Part shown: piece after piece, positions 1,417 through 10,469 of the stretch
How the letters are laid out: every line of letters begins with the position of its first letter
Position numbering within the stretch: the stretch's first letter is position 1
Translations under genes and position numbers: made by a program
The notes under the pieces: model-generated
Told to the model about the DNA's origin: nothing
What the model saw: the letters and a program-made list of their open reading frames with translations, nothing else
Database searches by the model: none
Assembly: GCF_021952865.1 (NCBI RefSeq)
Contig: NZ_CP040792.1
Coordinates: 2,852,001-2,916,000, forward strand
Direction: 5' to 3'
DNA length: 64,000 nucleotides
From: Clavibacter californiensis
GTDB taxonomy: Bacteria; Actinomycetota; Actinomycetes; Actinomycetales; Microbacteriaceae

Positions 1417-2358
1417 CTAGTTCGCACCGCTGGTGTTGATGCCGCCGTTGACGCCGTTGGGGTAGAACCCGCCCTTGGTCACGGCCTTGTTGTTCAGGTA
1501 CACGATGTTGAGGACCTGACCCGTGGTGCGGCTGAACGCGATGCCGTTCGCGTCGGTCGGCACGAGGTTCGCGCCGCCCGAGACCGTGATGCCCTGGTCG
1601 AGGTCCGTGGACCCGTCGAGGGAGTCGCGCGCGTCCGAGATCGCGTTCGTCGGAGCCGCGAGGCCCTTCGCGAACAGCGACGTGCGGATGATGCCCGCGT
1701 GGTACGCCTCGACCGCGAGGATGCCGGCGGCCGCCTCGAGGTACGTCTTGTTCGTGATGAGCGGGGCGGCGCCCTTGTAGGCGGTCACTCCGACGTCCTC
1801 GAACACGAAGGACGCGAGCAGGAAGTTCTCGTCGCTCGCGAACGCGTCGAACTTCTGGCCCGGCTTGATGAGGCCGGCGGCCGTCGCCGCGGCCGAGAAG
1901 GCCGCGTCGAGGTCGATGGCCGGACGGGCGACCTTGGCCGAGCCCAGCGCGGAGCGCAGGAACTTGACGTGGGCCTTCTCGTCCTGGGCGATCTCGCGGG
2001 CGTACTCGCGGATGGCGCGGTCCTTGAACTGGACCTGGCGGCCGCCCGTGACGCCACCGGCCGTGCCGACACCGGAGATGTCGTTCGGGACGAGGCCCGC
2101 GCCGGTGGAGGCGCGGAGGTAGAACTCGGCCTCGAGGTACTCGAGGTTCAGCGCGAAGTTGAGGACGGCGAGGTCGGTCGCCTGGCCGGAGTCGGCCTCG
2201 GCCTGGGCGTCGGCCGCCTGGGCTCCGGTCGCGGGGAGGAGGGCCGCGGCGCCGACGCCGAGACCCGCGACGCCCGCTGCGCTGAAGAAGCGACGACGGT
2301 CGAGCGGCGACTGCGCGCTCCGGTCGATGGCCTGGGTGATGAACTTCTTGTCGAACAT
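1417..2358 (-). CDS. Tat-exported ferritin-like domain protein
   Basis: The 313-residue protein has a twin-arginine signal (DRRRFF at about 21-26, then a hydrophobic stretch ending near GAQAADA). The mature part is a four-helix ferritin-like fold: [15 protein letters not shown] and VEAYHAG supply the Glu and His residues expected for a di-iron site. Related ferritin_2/desiccation-associated proteins are extracytoplasmic, and their exact reaction is not established. It stands alone with a 185-bp upstream region containing a short inverted repeat. Function beyond iron binding or oxidative-stress defence is inference. Confidence 0.85.
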
Positions 2359-2543: not shown

Positions 2544-5177
2544 TCAGGTCGGGATGACCTTGAAGAGCACCTTCCGCGTGACCATGAACCAGATCGCCGC
2601 CAGCACGAGGGTGTGGACCACTGTCCCCTGCCAGGGATTCGACCTGTCGAGGAACGGCAGGCTGCCGACGATCAGGACGAAGAACACGTGGACGATGAAG
2701 ACGTAGAGGCTCGCGGATCCGAGCGGCGTGTAGAACCAGCCGAACGCGCGGTCCACGGGCTTCCACACCCGGGTGAGGAACGTGTACGCGACCACGAGCA
2801 TCAGCGCGAGGTCGATGAGGCGTCCGGGCTGCAGGAACGTGCGCTGGTACATCGACTCGTACAGCGACGAGTAGAGGCCGTCAGGCACGCCCGGCAGCTG
2901 CACGCCGTAGGTGTGCCCGGCCCAGAGCACGGCGAGCGAGCCGACGTACGCCACCAGCCCGATCGTCACGAGCACGCGGCCGAGCCGGCCGGTGAGGGCG
3001 CGCGTGATCTGCTTCCGGTAGTAGCCGATGACCATGCCGTTGAGGAACGCGACCTGCCATGTGAGCAGCGGGAACACGTCCTCGAACATGGACGGCAGCA
3101 CGCGGATGTCGAACTGCGCGTTGAGCAGGTACCCGGTCCAGCTGACGATGAGCACGACCCACCACATGCGGCGGCGGAGCAGCCACACGACTGCGGGGAC
3201 GAGCAGGGTCAGCACCACGAACAGGCCCATGATGTTGAACACCCACGGGCCCATGCGGAGCAGCAGCAGGTCGCGGATCGCGTACCAGGGCGGCGGGTAG
3301 TCGAGCAGGCGCGCGCCGTTCGGGTAGAGGTCGTAGACCTGGCCGGTCGAGACCTTGCCGTCGGCGCCGGTGCCGCGGTCGGTGAACGTGGTGATCACGT
3401 CGGTGTCCAGGAAGGGCACGAAGGTGAGGGCGAAGACGATGACGACCACCGCGATCGCCACGATGTACTGCTTGAATGCGCGCCGGAGGATGGAGACGAG
3501 GGCCTTCATCTCGCCGAGCTTCTTGATGGCGAGCGGGTAGACCATGCCCAGCACGAGGCCGGACAGCAGCACGAACATCTCGGCACCCGTGATGGCGCCG
3601 ATCGCGTTGATGGTCACGTACGAGTACGGGCTCGCCACCTCGATGTGGGTGATGACCACGGCGACGATGGTCCAGCCGCGGAAGAGGTCGAGGCGGCGGT
3701 CGCGGGGCGAGTTCTCGTCGGGGTAGCGCCAGCCGGGCTTGAGGCGGCCGATGGGCCCGGAGATCACGAACAGCAGGAGCAGCACGACCGCGCAGAGCAC
3801 GATCCAGCCCATCTGCTCGTCCTCGGGCGATCCCGGGTCGCGGTACTGCGCGGTCGCGACGTTGGCGCGCTCCTGGTCGAAGACCTGCGTGACGGCGCCG
3901 AGGGTGGCGGTCGCGGGATCCAGGTGCGCGAGCAGGGCGGACGCGATGGGCGGATCCCCCGTGGCGCGCCAGTCGATGACGGCGCCGTCGGCCTCCGCCT
4001 CCGTGCGCTGGACCTCGCGCCACACCACCATGCCGATGCCGGGGTGCGCGGCCCGGATGTCGGCGGAGAGCACCTGGTCCCACCACGCGCTCTTGATCTC
4101 GATTTCGCTCGCGCCGTCGGTGCGGGCCGGGTCGTAGAGGGCGCCCGTCTCGATGACGGCCGGCTTGCCGGTGCCCTCGATCCACTCGGCCGCGAAGTCG
4201 CGCCCCGCGCCGCCCTGGTCGGCGTATCCGTACTCGCCGGCGAGCTCGCGGCCGAACTTGCCGTCCTCGGGCACCACGTTCTCGCCGAACGACTGCTGCG
4301 GGATCACCTCGCTCCCCAGGTAGTCCTTCGTGGGCTGCCCGACGGTGAAGTCCTGCTCGGAGCCGAAGTGGGACGCGGACAGGCCCACCCAGTCGACGGC
4401 GTCGTCGCCCGGGTAGTAGGGCCGGTAGGCGTCGTCGTCCACGTCGACGCGGCCGTTGCCGTCGGTGTCGAGCTCCGCGATGGACCGGGTGCCGGACGCG
4501 TCCGTGAGGCCGTCGGCGGATCCGAACGGGTAGCCGGCCGCGTAGGCGGGCGACCACACGGTGACGGCGCCCGCGTCGGACGCGTGCACGGCGTCGGCGA
4601 CCTGGCGGAAGGCCGCGATGTACGCGGTCGGCTGCTGGCCCCAGGGGGTCCACGAGCCGTTCATCTCGGGCGCGAACCGCACGAGCGCGCGGGAGTCGTA
4701 GCGCTCGCGCAGCGCCTCGAGCCGGCCCGTGAGGGCGGTCGCGTCCGCCGCCGTCAGGTCGGCGAGCGGCTTCGTCGGCTCGAGCGTGAGGAAGAGGAGC
4801 GATCCCTGCTGCGCGGCCTGCTGCGCGAACTGGTCGAGGTAGGTGACGTCGTCGGATCCGAGCGGGTAGCGCACCGACTGGCCGAGCACCGCGGGGCTCG
4901 CGCCCAGGCGGTCGGCGTAGCTCTGCGCGTCGTCGGCCGTCCAGTCGAGGATGCCGCCGAACCACGGCGCGGCGGGCGCGCGGGTGAGGTCGACCTCGTC
5001 GGCGGGTGCCGCGGGCGCGGCCGCGCGGGGCGATCCCGCCTGCGGCGCCGCGGGCACGGCGAGCGCCGCCGTCGCCGGGACGACCGCGATCGCGAGCGCC
5101 ACCATGGCCGCGGCCCAGCCGCCGATCCGTCCCCGCGTGCGCCCGCCCCCGCGTGCCCGCATCCCCCCGCCGCGCAT
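2544..5177 (-). CDS. Secreted GH26-like domain fused to OpgC-type membrane acyltransferase
   Basis: 877 residues. Residues 1-42 are a signal peptide or anchor. Residues about 65-400 resemble a GH26 beta-mannanase barrel: PEMNGSWTPWG places a candidate acid/base at Glu171, and PAVIETG a candidate nucleophile at Glu343. An EF-hand-like loop (Asp237, Asp239, Asn241, Asp248) interrupts the barrel. After a TM near 457-473, residues about 490-875 match the multi-pass OpgC domain (RDRRLDLFRGW, THIE, LLSGLVLG), known for succinylation of osmoregulated periplasmic glucans. It is the last gene of a signalling/glycosyltransferase operon, and its start overlaps the upstream stop (TGATG). I infer trimming plus acyl decoration of the glycan made by the operon's synthase. 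Confidence 0.85.
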   Translation of the reverse strand: MRGGGMRARGGGRTRGRIGGWAAAMVALAIAVVPATAALAVPAAPQAGSPRAAAPAAPADEVDLTRAPAAPWFGGILDWTADDAQSYADRLGASPAVLGQSVRYPLGSDDVTYLDQFAQQAAQQGSLLFLTLEPTKPLADLTAADATALTGRLEALRERYDSRALVRFAPEMNGSWTPWGQQPTAYIAAFRQVADAVHASDAGAVTVWSPAYAAGYPFGSADGLTDASGTRSIAELDTDGNGRVDVDDDAYRPYYPGDDAVDWVGLSASHFGSEQDFTVGQPTKDYLGSEVIPQQSFGENVVPEDGKFGRELAGEYGYADQGGAGRDFAAEWIEGTGKPAVIETGALYDPARTDGASEIEIKSAWWDQVLSADIRAAHPGIGMVVWREVQRTEAEADGAVIDWRATGDPPIASALLAHLDPATATLGAVTQVFDQERANVATAQYRDPGSPEDEQMGWIVLCAVVLLLLFVISGPIGRLKPGWRYPDENSPRDRRLDLFRGWTIVAVVITHIEVASPYSYVTINAIGAITGAEMFVLLSGLVLGMVYPLAIKKLGEMKALVSILRRAFKQYIVAIAVVVIVFALTFVPFLDTDVITTFTDRGTGADGKVSTGQVYDLYPNGARLLDYPPPWYAIRDLLLLRMGPWVFNIMGLFVVLTLLVPAVVWLLRRRMWWVVLIVSWTGYLLNAQFDIRVLPSMFEDVFPLLTWQVAFLNGMVIGYYRKQITRALTGRLGRVLVTIGLVAYVGSLAVLWAGHTYGVQLPGVPDGLYSSLYESMYQRTFLQPGRLIDLALMLVVAYTFLTRVWKPVDRAFGWFYTPLGSASLYVFIVHVFFVLIVGSLPFLDRSNPWQGTVVHTLVLAAIWFMVTRKVLFKVIPT

Positions 5178-5626
5178 CAGCCGCGCAGCCGGACCAGCCG
5201 CCAGCGGTTGCTGCCGTCGGTGCGCTCGTAGGTGAGGTCGTCGAGCACCGCCTGGGCGAGCGCCAGCCCGCGGCCGCTCTCGCTGAGGTCGTCGGGCATG
5301 GACACGCGCGTGAGGTCGACGATGGCGGGCTTCCCGTCGTCCTCGAACAGCGCCACGATGCGGTCGTGCTGGCAGATCACGGTCATGGTGAACGTCACGG
5401 GATAACCCGCGCGCTCCCCCACCGAGACGCCGTGCTCGACGACGTTGCCCGCGATCTCCACCACGGCCGTCTCGAACAGCATCCGCTCCTCGTCGCTCAC
5501 GTCGGACGCCTGGTCCCAGACCGCGGCGATCACCGCGTGCACGGCGCCGAGGCTCTCCTCGACGGCGGGCAGCGTGACGTTGGCGCGCACCGGCGGCGCC
5601 GGGTGCGTCATGCCCTCATCGGTCAC
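5177..5626 (-). CDS. RsbW-like anti-sigma/serine kinase (HATPase_c)
   Basis: 149 residues of GHKL ATPase fold: N-box VVEIAGNVVEHG near the centre, ATP-binding loop EDDGKP, and a G2-type motif GRGLALAQAV near the C-terminus. Family members phosphorylate a STAS-protein serine and hold or release a target. The GTG start is favoured by GAGGG eight bases upstream; an internal ATG at codon 6 is possible. It overlaps the STAS gene by 11 bases and the downstream GH26–OpgC gene by one, so it is translationally coupled to both. No sigma factor is nearby, so the held target is unknown. Confidence 0.87.
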   Translation of the reverse strand: MTDEGMTHPAPPVRANVTLPAVEESLGAVHAVIAAVWDQASDVSDEERMLFETAVVEIAGNVVEHGVSVGERAGYPVTFTMTVICQHDRIVALFEDDGKPAIVDLTRVSMPDDLSESGRGLALAQAVLDDLTYERTDGSNRWRLVRLRG

Positions 5627-5954
5627 GGAACACGCCCTCGGGCGAGTCGTGCACCGTGAGGACGCGGTTGAGGTTCGTGAGCTCCAGCACGGCCTTCACC
5701 TGCGCGTTCGGGCGGGCGAGCCGGAGGTCGCCGCCCGCCTGCCGGGCGCGCTTGAGACCGGAGACGAGGGCGCCGAGGCCGGAGGAGTCCATGAAGTCGG
5801 TGCCGCCGAGGTCCACGACGACGAACGGCCGGCCGCCGTCGATGACCTCGGTGATCACCGTCGTGAGCTGCCGGGCGGAGACCATGTTGAGCCGACCTGT
5901 GGGGCTGACGACGCTCACGTGCGTGCCCTGCTCGTTGACTGCGATGTCGATCAT
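5616..5954 (-). CDS. STAS-domain anti-anti-sigma factor (RsbV/SpoIIAA-like)
   Basis: The 112-residue protein is a single STAS domain. The motif FMDSSGLGAL contains the serine normally phosphorylated by an RsbW-type kinase and dephosphorylated by a PP2C phosphatase. Both enzymes lie in the same operon, so this is the likely switch protein. Its start overlaps the stop of the upstream glycosyltransferase gene (ATGA) and its 3' end overlaps the kinase gene by 11 bases. Regulatory output is inferred to be glycan synthesis or an unlinked sigma factor. Confidence 0.88.
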   Translation of the reverse strand: MIDIAVNEQGTHVSVVSPTGRLNMVSARQLTTVITEVIDGGRPFVVVDLGGTDFMDSSGLGALVSGLKRARQAGGDLRLARPNAQVKAVLELTNLNRVLTVHDSPEGVFRDR

Positions 5955-7942
5955 GCGTCCTCCTTGGCCGGCGTGAAGCCCCTGTAGCGGGCCGCACGGA
6001 TGATGATGCTGAAGATCGCCAGGTCGAAGACGACCCACGCGAGGTTGGTGAACGTGCCGAGCGGCGTGGCCTGCCCGACCCCGAGGCGCAGCAGGCCGAT
6101 CGCCGACGCGACGATCAGCGCGCCGATGACGTAGAGCTGCGGCTTCACGAGGTCCCACCGCGGCTTCCCGCTCGCGGCACGGACCTTCGGGGTGACCGCG
6201 AAGTCGAGGGGCTTGCGGAAGAACACGTTGGCGACGGCAGTGGTGACCGAGGAGATCCACACCGGGAACAGCGCGAGCGAGTACTGCTGGCCGCGCCAGG
6301 TGCGCTTGCCGCGGCCGACCACGGCGAACAGGAGCTGGTTGACGAGGAGGAACGGGATCAGTCGGATGAAGAAGTCCGTCGAGATCGCCTGCACCGGCAG
6401 CACGCCGAAGACGAGGTAGATGATGGGCGCGGCCACGTAGACGATGGCGGTGAAGCCGGAGAAGTAGCTCCACATCGTGGCGAAGTACATGAGGCGCTGC
6501 GGGATGGAGAGCGCCTTCTGCAGCAGCGGGTTCTCGCGGAAGAACACCTGGATCGTGCCCTGCGCCCAGCGGAGCCGCTGCGTGAGCATCGTCGGCAGGT
6601 CCTCCGGCGCCAGCCCGTAGGCGAGGACCTCGTCGTGGTACGCCGACTTCCAGCCGAGCCCGTGCAGGCGCATGCAGGTGGCCATGTCCTCGGTGACGGA
6701 GATGGTGGCCAGCGGCATGATCGACTGCGCGTCGTCGTCGCGGTGCACGTCGATGTCGCGGACGATCGCGCGCACCGCGTCGAGCGCCCCGAGCGGCGAC
6801 CAGTCGCGCTGCGCGAGGCGCGTCATGGCGCTCTCGTCGACGAGCGACACCGCGTCGCGCGCGGCGGAGTGGCGGCCGGCGAGCGCGGCGATCTCGGCGA
6901 GGTCGGCGTTCAGGGCCGCCATGTCGTCCTGCACCATGCGCGCGGCGATGGAGTCGACGCGCTTCTGGAAGCGGTAGGTCACGTCCGCCAGCGCCTGGCC
7001 GCGGCGGAGCTCGGCGCGGGCGCGGCGCACGTCGTAGGCGACGTCGTCGAGGGCCTTGCGCAGCTCCTGCTGGTCGGGCTCGAGCTCCTCGCAGGCCTTG
7101 TCGATCACGTCGCCCGCAGTCCGGAGCGCGCGGAACACGGTGATCTCGATGTCCGTCACGTAGCGCGAGACGCCGAGGAGCATGAGGGCCTCGCGGCGGA
7201 GGATCGCGTTGGAGCCGCAGAAGAACGCCGCGTTCCAGCCGTCCTTGCCCTGCTGGATGGGGCCGTAGAACAGCGGCGCCTGGCTGCCGAGAGGATCCGC
7301 GTCCGGCACGTTCACGAACACCTGCGGCGTCTGCACGAGCGCCATGCGCCGGTCGTCGAAGTAGCCGAGGGTCTTGTCGAGGATCTCCGGCGTGGGCACC
7401 TGGTCGGCGTCGAGGATGAGCATGAACTCGCCCTCGGTCGTGAGCAGCGCGTTGTTGAGGTTGCCGGCCTTGGCGTGGCGGGCGCGGCCCGACCAGTCGG
7501 CCGAGCGGGTGATCCAGCCGATGCCCTCCGCCTCCGCCAGGTCGCGGAGCTCGGTGCGGTCGCCGTCGTCGAGGACCCACGTCTTGTGCGGGTAGGTGAT
7601 GCGCTGGGCGGCGCGCGCCGTCTCCATCACGAGGTCGAGCGGCTCGTTGTACGTCGCGATGAACACGTCGACCGTGAGGCCCGGCTGCGGCGCGGGCGGC
7701 TTGGGCCGGTCGCGGGCCCGCCACATCGTGAGCCCGAACAGCAGCGAGTCGATGAGGCTGTACGTCTCCGCGAGCACGAGCGGGATCGCGATCCAGAGCG
7801 CCTCGGTGTTCACGGAGAACAGCAGCCGCCAGATGATGTAGTTCAAGCCGAGGATCGCCGTCACCACCACCAGGAGGCGGATGAACGCGAACCGCAGCGG
7901 CGACCTGCCCGTGGTCGGTGCGCGGTGAGTCGAGCGGCTCAT
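5951..7942 (-). CDS. Cellulose-synthase-like GT2 glycosyltransferase with internal coiled-coil insert
   Basis: 663-residue membrane protein. Two TM segments (about 18-70) precede a GT2 domain with the processive-synthase residues: FIATYNEP at 94-101, DDGD at 125-128, DAD at 178-180, TED at 417-419 and QRLRW at 455-459; further TM segments follow from about 490. Between GSNAILRREAL and TED lies about 150 charged, helix-prone residues (255-408) that BcsA-type enzymes lack. No PilZ domain is visible, so c-di-GMP control by that route is unlikely. It is flanked by a PP2C phosphatase and a STAS gene with ATGA overlaps on both sides. The product is probably an exopolysaccharide; its sugar is unknown. 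Confidence 0.9.
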   Translation of the reverse strand: MSRSTHRAPTTGRSPLRFAFIRLLVVVTAILGLNYIIWRLLFSVNTEALWIAIPLVLAETYSLIDSLLFGLTMWRARDRPKPPAPQPGLTVDVFIATYNEPLDLVMETARAAQRITYPHKTWVLDDGDRTELRDLAEAEGIGWITRSADWSGRARHAKAGNLNNALLTTEGEFMLILDADQVPTPEILDKTLGYFDDRRMALVQTPQVFVNVPDADPLGSQAPLFYGPIQQGKDGWNAAFFCGSNAILRREALMLLGVSRYVTDIEITVFRALRTAGDVIDKACEELEPDQQELRKALDDVAYDVRRARAELRRGQALADVTYRFQKRVDSIAARMVQDDMAALNADLAEIAALAGRHSAARDAVSLVDESAMTRLAQRDWSPLGALDAVRAIVRDIDVHRDDDAQSIMPLATISVTEDMATCMRLHGLGWKSAYHDEVLAYGLAPEDLPTMLTQRLRWAQGTIQVFFRENPLLQKALSIPQRLMYFATMWSYFSGFTAIVYVAAPIIYLVFGVLPVQAISTDFFIRLIPFLLVNQLLFAVVGRGKRTWRGQQYSLALFPVWISSVTTAVANVFFRKPLDFAVTPKVRAASGKPRWDLVKPQLYVIGALIVASAIGLLRLGVGQATPLGTFTNLAWVVFDLAIFSIIIRAARYRGFTPAKEDA

Positions 7943-9135
7943 GCGCGGCTCACGGCGAGGACGGTCACGTCGTCGAGCGGCGTGCCGGCGGAGGCGAGGA
8001 TGCGGACGCGCTCGACGAGCGCGTGCACGCCGCCGGCCTCGGTCACGAGGCGGCCGATCGACCCGAACGCGGGCGCGCTGCCGCCGAACATGTCGAACAG
8101 GCCGTCGCTGAAGGTGACGAACGTGTCGCCGCGCCCGAGCACCACGTGGCGCTCCTCCCAGCGGTGGTCGACGTCGATGCCGACCGGCAGGTCGCTCGTG
8201 TCCAGGTGGGTGACGCTGCCGTCCGGGTGGACGACGATGGTCAGCCCGTGCCCCGCGTCGGCGTAGCGGAGGAGTCCGGAGGCCTGGTCGAGGTGCCCGT
8301 GCTGCAGCGTGACGAAGGATCCCGTGCGGTCGAGGTCGGCGTCGAGCGAGCGCGCGGCGTCGGTGACCATGAGGCCCGTGTCCTCGAGGACGCCCGCGCC
8401 GTAGCGGTCGGCGGTGCTCGCGATGCCGCGGAGGACGGCGCGGACGGTGGCCGTGAGGATCGCCGCGCCCGTGCCCTTGCCCATCACGTCGGCGATCGAG
8501 AAGCGGAGTCCGGACGCGGTGCGCTCGTAGTCGTAGAAGTCGCCGCCCACGACCTGCGCGGGCACGCACACGGCGGCGATGTCGTAGCCGGGGATCTCGA
8601 CCTCGGCGGCCGGCAGCAGCGCCATCTGGACCGCCTGGGCGCGCTCCATCTCCGCGTTCGCGACGAGCTCGCGCTGCGCCCACTCGGCGAGCTCGGCGAA
8701 GAGCGCGAGCTGGCCGGCGTCGAGAGCGCGCGGCTCGACGTCGTACAGGCAGAAGGTGCCGAGGACGAGGCCCTCGGGGTCCCGCAGCGGATGCCCCGCG
8801 TAGAAGCGGATGTGCGGCTCGCCCGCGACGGTGGGCAGGTGCCGGAAGACGGGGTGGTCCCGCGCGTCCTCGACGACGAGGATCCGCTCCTCGCGCACCG
8901 TGGTGTCGCAGAAGACGGTGCTGATCGGCGTCTCCGAGAGCTCGGCGCCGGCGCACGACGCGAACCACATGCGGTCGTGGTCCGCGAGGCCGATGGTCGA
9001 GAGCGGCACGCCGAACGCCGTGCGAGCCAGGCGCGTGACCCGGTCGAAGCGCTCCTCGGGAGGTCCGTCGAGCAGTCCCAGGGCCTCGACGGCACGCTGC
9101 GATGCGCTCGACCGCGCGTCCTCGATCAGACTCAT
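7939..9135 (-). CDS. GAF-like sensor fused to SpoIIE/PP2C serine phosphatase
   Basis: 398 residues from the ATG. Residues about 10-160 form a GAF-like sensor, and 170-395 a PP2C (SpoIIE) phosphatase with its metal-binding motifs GGDFYDY, ADVMGKGTGAA, FSDGLFD and DDVTVL. By family it dephosphorylates the STAS protein and so reverses the RsbW-like kinase encoded downstream. I chose the ATG at 9135 because GAGGTG lies about nine bases upstream; a GTG four codons earlier is also open. It is the first gene of the operon, so signal input precedes synthesis and modification genes. The ligand sensed is unknown. Confidence 0.9.
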   Translation of the reverse strand: MSLIEDARSSASQRAVEALGLLDGPPEERFDRVTRLARTAFGVPLSTIGLADHDRMWFASCAGAELSETPISTVFCDTTVREERILVVEDARDHPVFRHLPTVAGEPHIRFYAGHPLRDPEGLVLGTFCLYDVEPRALDAGQLALFAELAEWAQRELVANAEMERAQAVQMALLPAAEVEIPGYDIAAVCVPAQVVGGDFYDYERTASGLRFSIADVMGKGTGAAILTATVRAVLRGIASTADRYGAGVLEDTGLMVTDAARSLDADLDRTGSFVTLQHGHLDQASGLLRYADAGHGLTIVVHPDGSVTHLDTSDLPVGIDVDHRWEERHVVLGRGDTFVTFSDGLFDMFGGSAPAFGSIGRLVTEAGGVHALVERVRILASAGTPLDDVTVLAVSRA

Positions 9136-9314: not shown

Positions 9315-10469
9315 ATGGCATCAGCACGACGACCGGAGCTGCCCTACCTCGACGGAATGCGGGGCGCCGCCGCCCTCGCCGTCGTGGCGTTCCACGCGTT
9401 CCTCTACACCGGGCTCAGCGGTCAGGCCTGGCGGGACCTGCCGCTCCTCGGGTGGATCACCGGCTACGGCTACCTCGGCGTGCCCGTCTTCATCGTCCTG
9501 TCGGGCTACGTCCTCATGCTGCCCGTCGCCGGCCGCCCGGGGCTCGACCTGCGGCACGGCACGGCGACCTTCCTCCGGCGCCGGGCCCGGCGGATCCTGC
9601 CGCCCTACTTCGCGGCCCTCGCGCTCAGCCTGCTGATGGCGCTCGCGATCCCCGTGATGCGCGACGGCGCCGGCACCGCGTGGGAGAGCGCGGCGCCCGC
9701 CACCCCCGCGGGCATCGTCTCCCATGTGCTCCTGCTGCAGGACGTCTCCCCCGCGTGGGTCAGCCAGGTGAACGCGCCGCTGTGGAGCGTGGCCGTCGAG
9801 TGGCAGATCTACTTCCTCATGCCGCTGGTGCTGCTGCCGCTCTGGCGCCGCTGGGGCGGGCTGCCCGTCGTCGCTGCCGCCACGATCGTCATGACCGGCG
9901 CGTCCCTCGCCGTCTTCGCCCCCTGGGCGTGCCCGTGGCTGCTGGGCCTCTTCGCCGCCGGGATGCTCGCCGCCGAGCTCACGGTCGGCGGTCGCCCGCG
10001 CTGGGCGTCCGACCGGCTGCTGCTCGCGGTGGCCGCGGGCGCCGCGGCCGTGCTGCTCCTCGGGATCACGGTGCTGCAGGGCAGCGTGTGGGCCGCGGAG
10101 CTCGTCGCCGGCGCGGGCTTCGCGTCGCTCCTCGCGTGGGCAGGCGGGCGCACGATGGCCGGATCCCGCCCGCGCGCGCTCGGCGCCTTCGTCACCCGTC
10201 CGGCGCAACGGCTCGGACTCGTCTCCTACAGCGTCTACCTCGTTCACGGCCCGTTCCTCGCGCTCGGCAACCTCCTCCTGCTGCCGCTCGGGCTGCCCAC
10301 GGGCGCGCACGCGGCGCTGATGCTGCTGGTCGTCGCGCCGCTCGCGGTCGCGGCCGGCTTCGGCTTCTTCCACCTCGTGGAGCGGCACTTCCTCAACACG
10401 CGCCAGGTGCACGTCACGGAGGCGGCGGTTCCGGATGGGGTGCCCGTCTCGCCCAAGCCCGCGGCCTGA
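9315..10469 (+). CDS. Acyltransferase 3 family membrane protein (OafA/YrhL-like)
   Basis: 384 residues with about ten membrane segments. The N-terminus has the family signature LPYLDGMRGAAALAVVAFHAF, with the conserved His near residue 29, followed by YLGVPVFIVLSGYVL and the basic loop FLRRRARRILPPYF. Such enzymes move acetyl or other acyl groups onto sugars of surface glycans. It is transcribed away from the glycan/partner-switching operon and may decorate the same polymer, though that is inference. The ATG follows a G-rich stretch (ggggatc) two bases upstream. Confidence 0.85.
   Translation: MASARRPELPYLDGMRGAAALAVVAFHAFLYTGLSGQAWRDLPLLGWITGYGYLGVPVFIVLSGYVLMLPVAGRPGLDLRHGTATFLRRRARRILPPYFAALALSLLMALAIPVMRDGAGTAWESAAPATPAGIVSHVLLLQDVSPAWVSQVNAPLWSVAVEWQIYFLMPLVLLPLWRRWGGLPVVAAATIVMTGASLAVFAPWACPWLLGLFAAGMLAAELTVGGRPRWASDRLLLAVAAGAAAVLLLGITVLQGSVWAAELVAGAGFASLLAWAGGRTMAGSRPRALGAFVTRPAQRLGLVSYSVYLVHGPFLALGNLLLLPLGLPTGAHAALMLLVVAPLAVAAGFGFFHLVERHFLNTRQVHVTEAAVPDGVPVSPKPAA

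What the first reader, a model, noticed from the sequence alone, without database searches (positions are those of the whole stretch)
2544..9135. Complete partner-switching module built into a glycan synthase operon
Five overlapping genes encode a SpoIIE phosphatase with GAF-like sensor, a processive GT2 synthase, a STAS switch protein, an RsbW-like kinase and a GH26–OpgC fusion. All key residues of the phosphorylation cycle are present, but no sigma factor is encoded. The ordering suggests serine phosphorylation of the STAS protein controls glycan synthesis directly, perhaps by contact with the synthase, instead of transcription. I do not know a described actinobacterial system of this make-up.
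Basis: partly seen in the sequence, partly recalled or inferred. Interest (0 to 1): 0.78.

Follow-up and report, generated by a model that had tools for sequence, protein, structure and literature searches.

The report
Sugar-polymer synthase with protein-phosphorylation switch
A cellulose-synthase-like enzyme of many soil and plant actinobacteria is encoded together with a kinase, a phosphatase and a small switch protein of the kind best known from control of transcription, and in two relatives the switch protein is fused to the enzyme, which suggests that the switch works on the enzyme itself.

Summary
The five overlapping genes are real: GAF-SpoIIE phosphatase, BcsA-like GT2, STAS protein with DSSG, RsbW-like kinase, GH26-OpgC protein. 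The genome is Clavibacter-like. The module is widespread: of 157 non-identical loci of this GT2 subfamily, 141 have a STAS and 141 a kinase gene within 3 kb; 0 of 20 control GT2 loci have either. The GT2 has no PilZ, keeps the gating-loop motif and carries a helical insert of about 155 residues before TED.
The strongest evidence is a natural experiment. One derived clade (10 loci, shorter insert) has no kinase or phosphatase nearby and has lost the DSSG site, yet all 10 keep a STAS domain beside the synthase, under purifying selection; in two it is fused to the GT2 C-terminus. Also 22 of 37 Microbacteriaceae carriers have no detected SigB-type sigma factor, although carriers have one more often than non-carriers.
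Best reading: STAS is a synthase subunit in the place of PilZ/c-di-GMP, toggled by kinase and phosphatase. Contact and sign of control are inferred. Nearest precedents act on diguanylate cyclases, one in a glucan pathway of Sinorhizobium; my searches found none acting on the synthase.

The parts
7939..9135 (-). SpoIIE-type (PP2C) serine phosphatase with N-terminal GAF domain, 398 aa; input of the switch
   Evidence: Pfam SpoIIE 96 bits and GAF 59 bits; metal-binding Asp motifs in the consensus of 94 relatives
5951..7942 (-). BcsA-like processive GT2 synthase, 663 aa, no PilZ domain
6707..7168 (-). helical insert of the GT2 (aa 259-412) between FCGSNA...LG and TISVTED; proposed regulatory docking domain
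   Evidence: splits the match to BcsA between aa 257 and 411; in 111 of 111 loci first examined; no significant Pfam match for the window copy and no convincing solved homologue; all-helical model, mean pLDDT 72
6785..6808 (-). conserved stretch R-D-W-S-P-L-G-A (aa 379-386) within the insert
   Evidence: pattern R.[WLA]S[PA]..A in 141 of 157 insert-type GT2s, 0 of 10 short-insert ones, 0 of 9 controls
5616..5954 (-). single-domain STAS protein, 112 aa; switch protein
   Evidence: Pfam STAS 66 bits; NCBIfam anti-sigma factor antagonist superfamily 77 bits, cut-off 53
5778..5789 (-). DSSG site of the STAS protein
   Evidence: 127 DSSG, 2 DSTG, 2 DSSA, 2 TASG and 1 TAAG among the 134 STAS domains then held; lost in all 10 short-insert loci. 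That it is the phosphosite is recalled from RsbV/SpoIIAA
5177..5626 (-). RsbW-like serine kinase (HATPase_c_2), 149 aa
   Evidence: Pfam HATPase_c_2 46 bits, cut-off 27; N-box and G-boxes in the consensus of 100 relatives
2544..5177 (-). GH26-like domain fused to OpgC-type membrane acyltransferase, 877 aa
   Evidence: OpgC_C 177 bits; GH26 supported by relatives and by a weak match to endoglucanase H, E 1.3e-4

Best explanation
A post-translational partner switch whose output is a cellulose-synthase-type enzyme. The unphosphorylated STAS protein binds the GT2 synthase, probably at the helical insert beside the catalytic TED region, and permits synthesis; it fills the place that PilZ with c-di-GMP fills in BcsA. 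The RsbW-like kinase phosphorylates the DSSG site and removes STAS from the synthase; the GAF-SpoIIE phosphatase restores it when its signal arrives. The GH26 part trims and the OpgC part acylates the exported polymer. Shown from sequence: gene content, conserved residues, insert, lack of PilZ, lasting STAS-synthase association, two natural fusions. Inferred: the contact, its site, the phosphorylation cycle, the sign (active when unphosphorylated) and the polymer.
For: Linkage: STAS within 3 kb in 141 of 157 non-identical insert-type loci, 139 of these on the same strand; kinase in 141 of 157, both in 138; 0 of 20 for other GT2s of the same family. Of the 16 loci without a STAS within 3 kb, 15 have STAS elsewhere: 11 of 11 genomes searched, three, and L100 about 3.2 kb away; the 16th (L074) was not held. 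Natural experiment: 10 of 10 short-insert loci keep a STAS domain just downstream on the same strand, 0 of 10 have kinase or phosphatase in the 7-14 kb read, DSSG reads TASG, TAAG, TPAG, GASG or SPSG. In 2 of 10 the domain is in one open frame with the GT2. Pfam STAS is over its cut-off in 5 of 5 domains scanned of the 10. In genera g48 and g70 it is in 5 of 5 genomes with this GT2 and 0 of 4 without. The clade is nested among insert-type synthases, SH-aLRT 100. dN/dS of the STAS part is 0.11-0.42 in 8 pairs. PilZ: 0 of 55 here; 5 of 9 scanned of the 20 control GT2s. SigB-type sigma not found in 22 of 37 Microbacteriaceae carriers, 18 of which have linked STAS and kinase, nor in the 5 short-insert genomes of that family.
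Against: Carriers have SigB-type sigma more often than non-carriers (15 of 37 against 16 of 212; Fisher p 1.4e-6, not corrected for relatedness), and it is nearly universal in family f8 (278 of 294), so a sigma target is not excluded there. The window's own genome has two SigB-type genes. Three genomes of genus g32 keep the kinase but no STAS next to the GT2; L335 has an insert-type GT2 with no switch gene nearby. Covariation: mean MI of STAS with the insert (z 5.9) hardly exceeds that with the core (z 4.6), the insert holds 39 of the top 100 pairs against 34.6% expected, and the positive control STAS-kinase is weak (z 1.1). Partial distance correlations: STAS-insert 0.24, STAS-core 0.32, STAS-kinase 0.26. 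The short-insert clade is one origin, so 10 loci are not 10 events. Whether its genomes hold a kinase elsewhere was not searched; three of them do, with their second GT2. No complex was modelled. Absence of PilZ does not exclude c-di-GMP binding: BgsA of S. meliloti lacks PilZ and binds it (passage of PMC10374906).
Confidence: 0.62

Rival explanations
1. Kinase-held synthase: the RsbW-like kinase itself binds and blocks the GT2 insert, as RsbW binds sigma-B, and unphosphorylated STAS only titrates the kinase away. The synthase takes the sigma factor's place in a three-way switch.
For: Three genomes keep the kinase but not STAS next to the GT2. The RDWSPLGA part of the insert is missing in the clade that lacks a linked kinase, so that part could be the kinase dock.
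Against: STAS is kept, and in one branch fused, where no kinase is linked, which pure titration would not require. A mixed model with both contacts remains open.
Confidence: 0.14
2. Ordinary transcriptional switch: the kinase is an anti-sigma factor for an unlinked SigB-type sigma, and the GT2 operon merely lies in its regulon.
For: All switch parts are of the anti-sigma kind. The window genome has SigB-type genes, and carriers have such genes more often than non-carriers.
Against: 22 of 37 Microbacteriaceae carriers have no SigB-type sigma by TIGR02980. The window genome has a second STAS-kinase-SpoIIE set that could serve SigB. STAS-GT2 pairs without linked kinase, and fusions, have no place in this model.
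Confidence: 0.12
3. STAS is an inhibitory or purely structural subunit: it binds the synthase but does not license it.
For: The comparative data show association, not sign. Fused and DSSG-free forms fit a fixed structural role.
Against: A permanently inhibited synthase kept under purifying selection is unlikely. In V. fischeri unphosphorylated SypA promotes biofilm (passages).
Confidence: 0.07
4. Indirect control through c-di-GMP: STAS acts on an unlinked diguanylate cyclase, as BgrV on BgrR in Sinorhizobium meliloti, and the synthase answers to c-di-GMP without PilZ, as BgsA does.
For: The S. meliloti precedent couples a partner switch to mixed-linkage glucan synthesis through a cyclase (PMC8457831 passages and reference title); BgsA binds c-di-GMP without PilZ (PMC10374906 passage).
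Against: I recognised no cyclase by eye among the recurring neighbours; a STAS domain fused to the synthase points to the synthase. Cyclases were not searched genome-wide.
Confidence: 0.05

Closest known systems
RsbU-RsbV-RsbW / SigB partner switching (Bacillus and relatives)
   Same: same three protein families with DSSG-type site, kinase boxes and phosphatase Asp motifs
   Different: no sigma factor in the operon; many carrier genomes have no detected SigB-type sigma; the linked output gene is a processive glycan synthase
BgrSTUWV / BgsA of Sinorhizobium meliloti and HptB-HptR-HsbA / HsbD of Pseudomonas aeruginosa
   Same: partner switches in which a STAS protein sets the activity of an enzyme; the former governs mixed-linkage glucan synthesis (seen only as passages and a reference title in PMC8457831)
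   Different: the enzyme controlled is a diguanylate cyclase, so the synthase is reached through c-di-GMP; here the switch is encoded with the synthase and a STAS domain is fused to it in two relatives
SypA-SypE of Vibrio fischeri (symbiosis polysaccharide)
   Same: STAS protein under Ser phosphorylation in a polysaccharide locus; [quoted passage not shown] judged unlikely to be an anti-sigma antagonist in one review (PMC11112999 passage), while another leaves sigma factors open (PMC8256260, part 2 of 5)
   Different: single kinase/phosphatase protein SypE; no GT2-STAS fusion or insert-bearing cellulose-synthase-type GT2 in what I read
SiaABCD of Pseudomonas aeruginosa
   Same: switch protein activates an enzyme by binding its helical stalks (PMC8457831 abstract); phosphorylation prevents the contact (passage)
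   Different: the enzyme is a diguanylate cyclase; SiaC is DUF1987, only structurally related to STAS (passage)
BcsA bacterial cellulose synthase
   Different: PilZ is absent here; a ~155-residue helical insert is present
Class-specific region of plant cellulose synthases
   Same: an insertion in the cytosolic catalytic domain used for protein contacts (PMC12077881, two passages); its position before TED is recalled
   Different: no sequence relation detected; plant assembly, not a phospho-switch

Membership tests
RsbU/RsbV/RsbW partner-switching module | SpoIIE-type phosphatase with metal-binding Asp residues | tested here: met
RsbU/RsbV/RsbW partner-switching module | single-domain STAS protein with DSSG/DSTG site | tested here: met
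RsbU/RsbV/RsbW partner-switching module | HATPase_c_2 serine kinase with N-box and G-boxes | tested here: met
SigB-type anti-sigma system | SigB-type sigma factor encoded with the switch | tested here: not met
   none of the seven proteins of the region scanned is a sigma factor
SigB-type anti-sigma system | SigB-type sigma factor somewhere in the genome | tested here: inconclusive
   by TIGR02980 (gap 164 to 137 bits) present in 15 of 37 Microbacteriaceae carriers, the window genome included, not found in 22 of 37; present in 278 of 294 genomes of family f8
SigB-type anti-sigma system | kinase binds a sigma factor | not testable with these tools
   needs a binding assay
BcsA cellulose synthase | D, D, TED, QxxRW motifs and BcsA fold | tested here: met
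BcsA cellulose synthase | C-terminal PilZ domain for c-di-GMP | tested here: not met
   PilZ in 0 of 55 members at E 0.01; only 77 residues follow FxVTPK in the window protein
BcsA cellulose synthase (TIGR03030 equivalog) | score over the curated cut-off | tested here: not met
   351 of 699 bits
BcsA cellulose synthase | BcsB partner subunit | not tested
   none recognised by eye among recurring neighbours; genome not searched
GH26 | Pfam GH26 over cut-off | tested here: inconclusive
   window protein 12 bits of 20 needed; two relatives 46 and 54 bits

The most novel reading that the evidence does not exclude
A STAS protein is a true regulatory subunit of a processive glycan synthase and takes the place of PilZ/c-di-GMP. 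Serine phosphorylation gates polymer synthesis at the enzyme itself, and the actinobacterial family shows the whole series: regulated free subunit, DSSG-free free subunit, fused domain.
Probability: 0.57. Interest if true: 0.85.

Novelty: new variant of a known kind. Interest (0 to 1): 0.73.

Why it matters
Several bacterial STAS proteins act without an evident sigma factor and their targets are called unknown (PMC8256260 part 2, PMC11112999 and PMC10120452 passages). Here a target can be named and tested. If true it is a way to gate a cellulose-type synthase by serine phosphorylation at the enzyme, in proteins that lack the PilZ domain. The natural fusions and DSSG-free forms are ready-made test objects.

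Tried and rejected
The phylum-wide profile search gave 2 of 396 genomes; I distrust it because only three candidates per genome were scored, and family and order searches found more: 73 of 249 with any GT2 match and 37 insert-type, 59 of 294, 24 of 396. A first STAS profile was contaminated by out-of-frame GT2 translation and was rebuilt. The GT2 model has stretches of pLDDT under 50 within 226-264 and 341-411, so I do not place the insert. Pfam hits of single insert members (TraB in 26 of 54, best E 1.3e-4) look to me like helical noise and were not followed. GT2-STAS fusions were sought among 111 full-insert loci: the longest C-terminal tail is 44 residues, no fusion.

Rows dropped: 204 GT2 hits over 900 bits became 157 when those identical over residues 21-600 were merged; 137 of these 157 with same-strand STAS and kinase went into covariation and 128 with a phosphatase into the distance test. 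PilZ was scanned in 9 of the 20 control GT2s, Pfam STAS in 5 of the 10 short-insert loci. Loci from the genome search have short flanks, so phosphatase counts are lower bounds.
Full report
Observation. Five genes on the - strand, 9135 to 2544, overlap by 4, 4, 11 and 1 bases. Pfam and NCBIfam confirm GAF-SpoIIE phosphatase, BcsA-like GT2, anti-sigma-antagonist-type STAS protein, RsbW-like kinase and OpgC acyltransferase; the GH26 part is below cut-off in the window protein but over it in two relatives. The genome is of the genus Clavibacter or very near it: five named Clavibacter records have the GT2 at 95-98% identity.

Conservation. In Microbacteriaceae 73 of 249 genomes had a GT2 match at E 1e-20; by score 37 are insert-type and 5 split-type. 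In a second family (f8, which holds a genome identical to the Nocardioides terrigena query over the whole GT2) 59 of 294 genomes carry it. Of 157 non-identical insert-type loci, 141 have STAS and 141 a kinase within 3 kb, 138 both, and 130 a phosphatase within 6 kb. Order varies: phosphatase-GT2-STAS-kinase is commonest, and other orders occur. Control: 20 loci of other GT2s from the same family show no STAS, kinase or phosphatase. Of the 16 loci without STAS within 3 kb, 15 have STAS elsewhere and one (L074) was not held. The main other recurring neighbours are GH26(-OpgC) proteins.

Sigma factor. With TIGR02980 the best scores per genome leave a gap between 164 and 137 bits. Above it lie 31 of 249 Microbacteriaceae genomes: 15 of 37 carriers and 16 of 212 non-carriers (Fisher p 1.4e-6, uncorrected for relatedness). 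So 22 carriers have no SigB-type sigma by this profile; 18 of them have linked STAS and kinase. The positive association counts against a strict separation. In f8 SigB is nearly universal (278 of 294). The window genome has two SigB-type genes and a second STAS-kinase-SpoIIE set at C1 148-152 kb without a synthase.

Natural experiment. Ten loci from four genera in three families (L162-L166, L320-L324) carry a short-insert GT2. In all ten a STAS domain lies directly downstream on the same strand, before GH26; none shows kinase or phosphatase in the stretch read (7-14 kb). The DSSG site reads TASG, TASG, TAAG (g48), TPAG twice (g70), GASG three times (g86), SPSG twice (g417): the Asp and the first Ser are lost in 10 of 10, the second Ser is lost in 3 of 10, so which serine matters is open. 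In g70 the STAS domain is in one open frame with the GT2 in both genomes. Pfam STAS is over its cut-off in the five domains scanned. In g48 and g70 this STAS occurs in 5 of 5 genomes with the GT2 and 0 of 4 without. The ten form one clade (SH-aLRT 100) nested among insert-type synthases on a tree of 70 rows built without the insert, so loss of the linked switch is derived, with one origin. dN/dS of the STAS part is 0.11-0.42 in eight pairs, against 0.04-0.22 for the GT2. Three genomes carry both forms: a full-insert GT2 with the whole switch and a short-insert GT2 with DSSG-free STAS. The insert pattern R.[WLA]S[PA]..A is in 141 of 157 insert-type and 0 of 10 short-insert proteins; it is a candidate site for the regulated contact.

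Mechanism. A STAS domain that outlives its linked kinase, phosphatase and DSSG site beside the synthase, and is then fused to it, most likely has a role at the synthase. Together with the lack of PilZ, the simplest model is a synthase-gating subunit that kinase and phosphatase toggle. The unphosphorylated form as the active one is inferred from RsbV (recalled), SypA, SiaC and the DSSG-free clade. Covariation neither supports nor refutes the insert as the site.

Literature. Searches listed no actinobacterial GT2 partner switch; the library holds open-licence PMC papers only. The one paper holding both 'partner-switching' and 'cellulose synthase' is on SiaC-SiaD; its passages name the nearest precedents: STAS proteins HsbA and BgrV that set diguanylate cyclase activity, the latter in a switch that governs mixed-linkage glucan synthesis in S. 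meliloti. So a STAS protein acting on an enzyme, and a partner switch in a glucan pathway, are both known; a switch encoded with the synthase, and a STAS domain fused to it, are what is new here. SypA's target is called unknown (passages).

Noticed in passing
window 9315-10469 (+): Divergently transcribed acyltransferase_3 gene immediately upstream of the operon (Pfam 120 bits); it might modify the same glycan.
   Followed up: no
L189 (G000 C1 142000-160000): Second STAS-kinase set with two SpoIIE phosphatases (by eye one with membrane segments, one with a GAF-like N-terminus) and no synthase; candidate SigB regulator of the same genome.
   Followed up: partly
L129, L131, L132: Three genomes of genus g32 have the kinase but no STAS directly after the GT2; each has one STAS with its own kinase elsewhere (L258-L260).
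   Followed up: partly
L148 and L161: Two STAS genes flank the same GT2, one upstream with a kinase and a phosphatase, one downstream.
   Followed up: no
L091 and L077: The GT2 of a Kitasatospora record is very close to that of Williamsia (short branches): recent transfer or a mixed assembly.
   Followed up: no
L335: Insert-type GT2 without any switch gene nearby; its genome has another GT2 with the full switch (L334).
   Followed up: no
window 1417-2358 (-): Ferritin-like-domain protein downstream of the operon (Pfam 156 bits).
   Followed up: no
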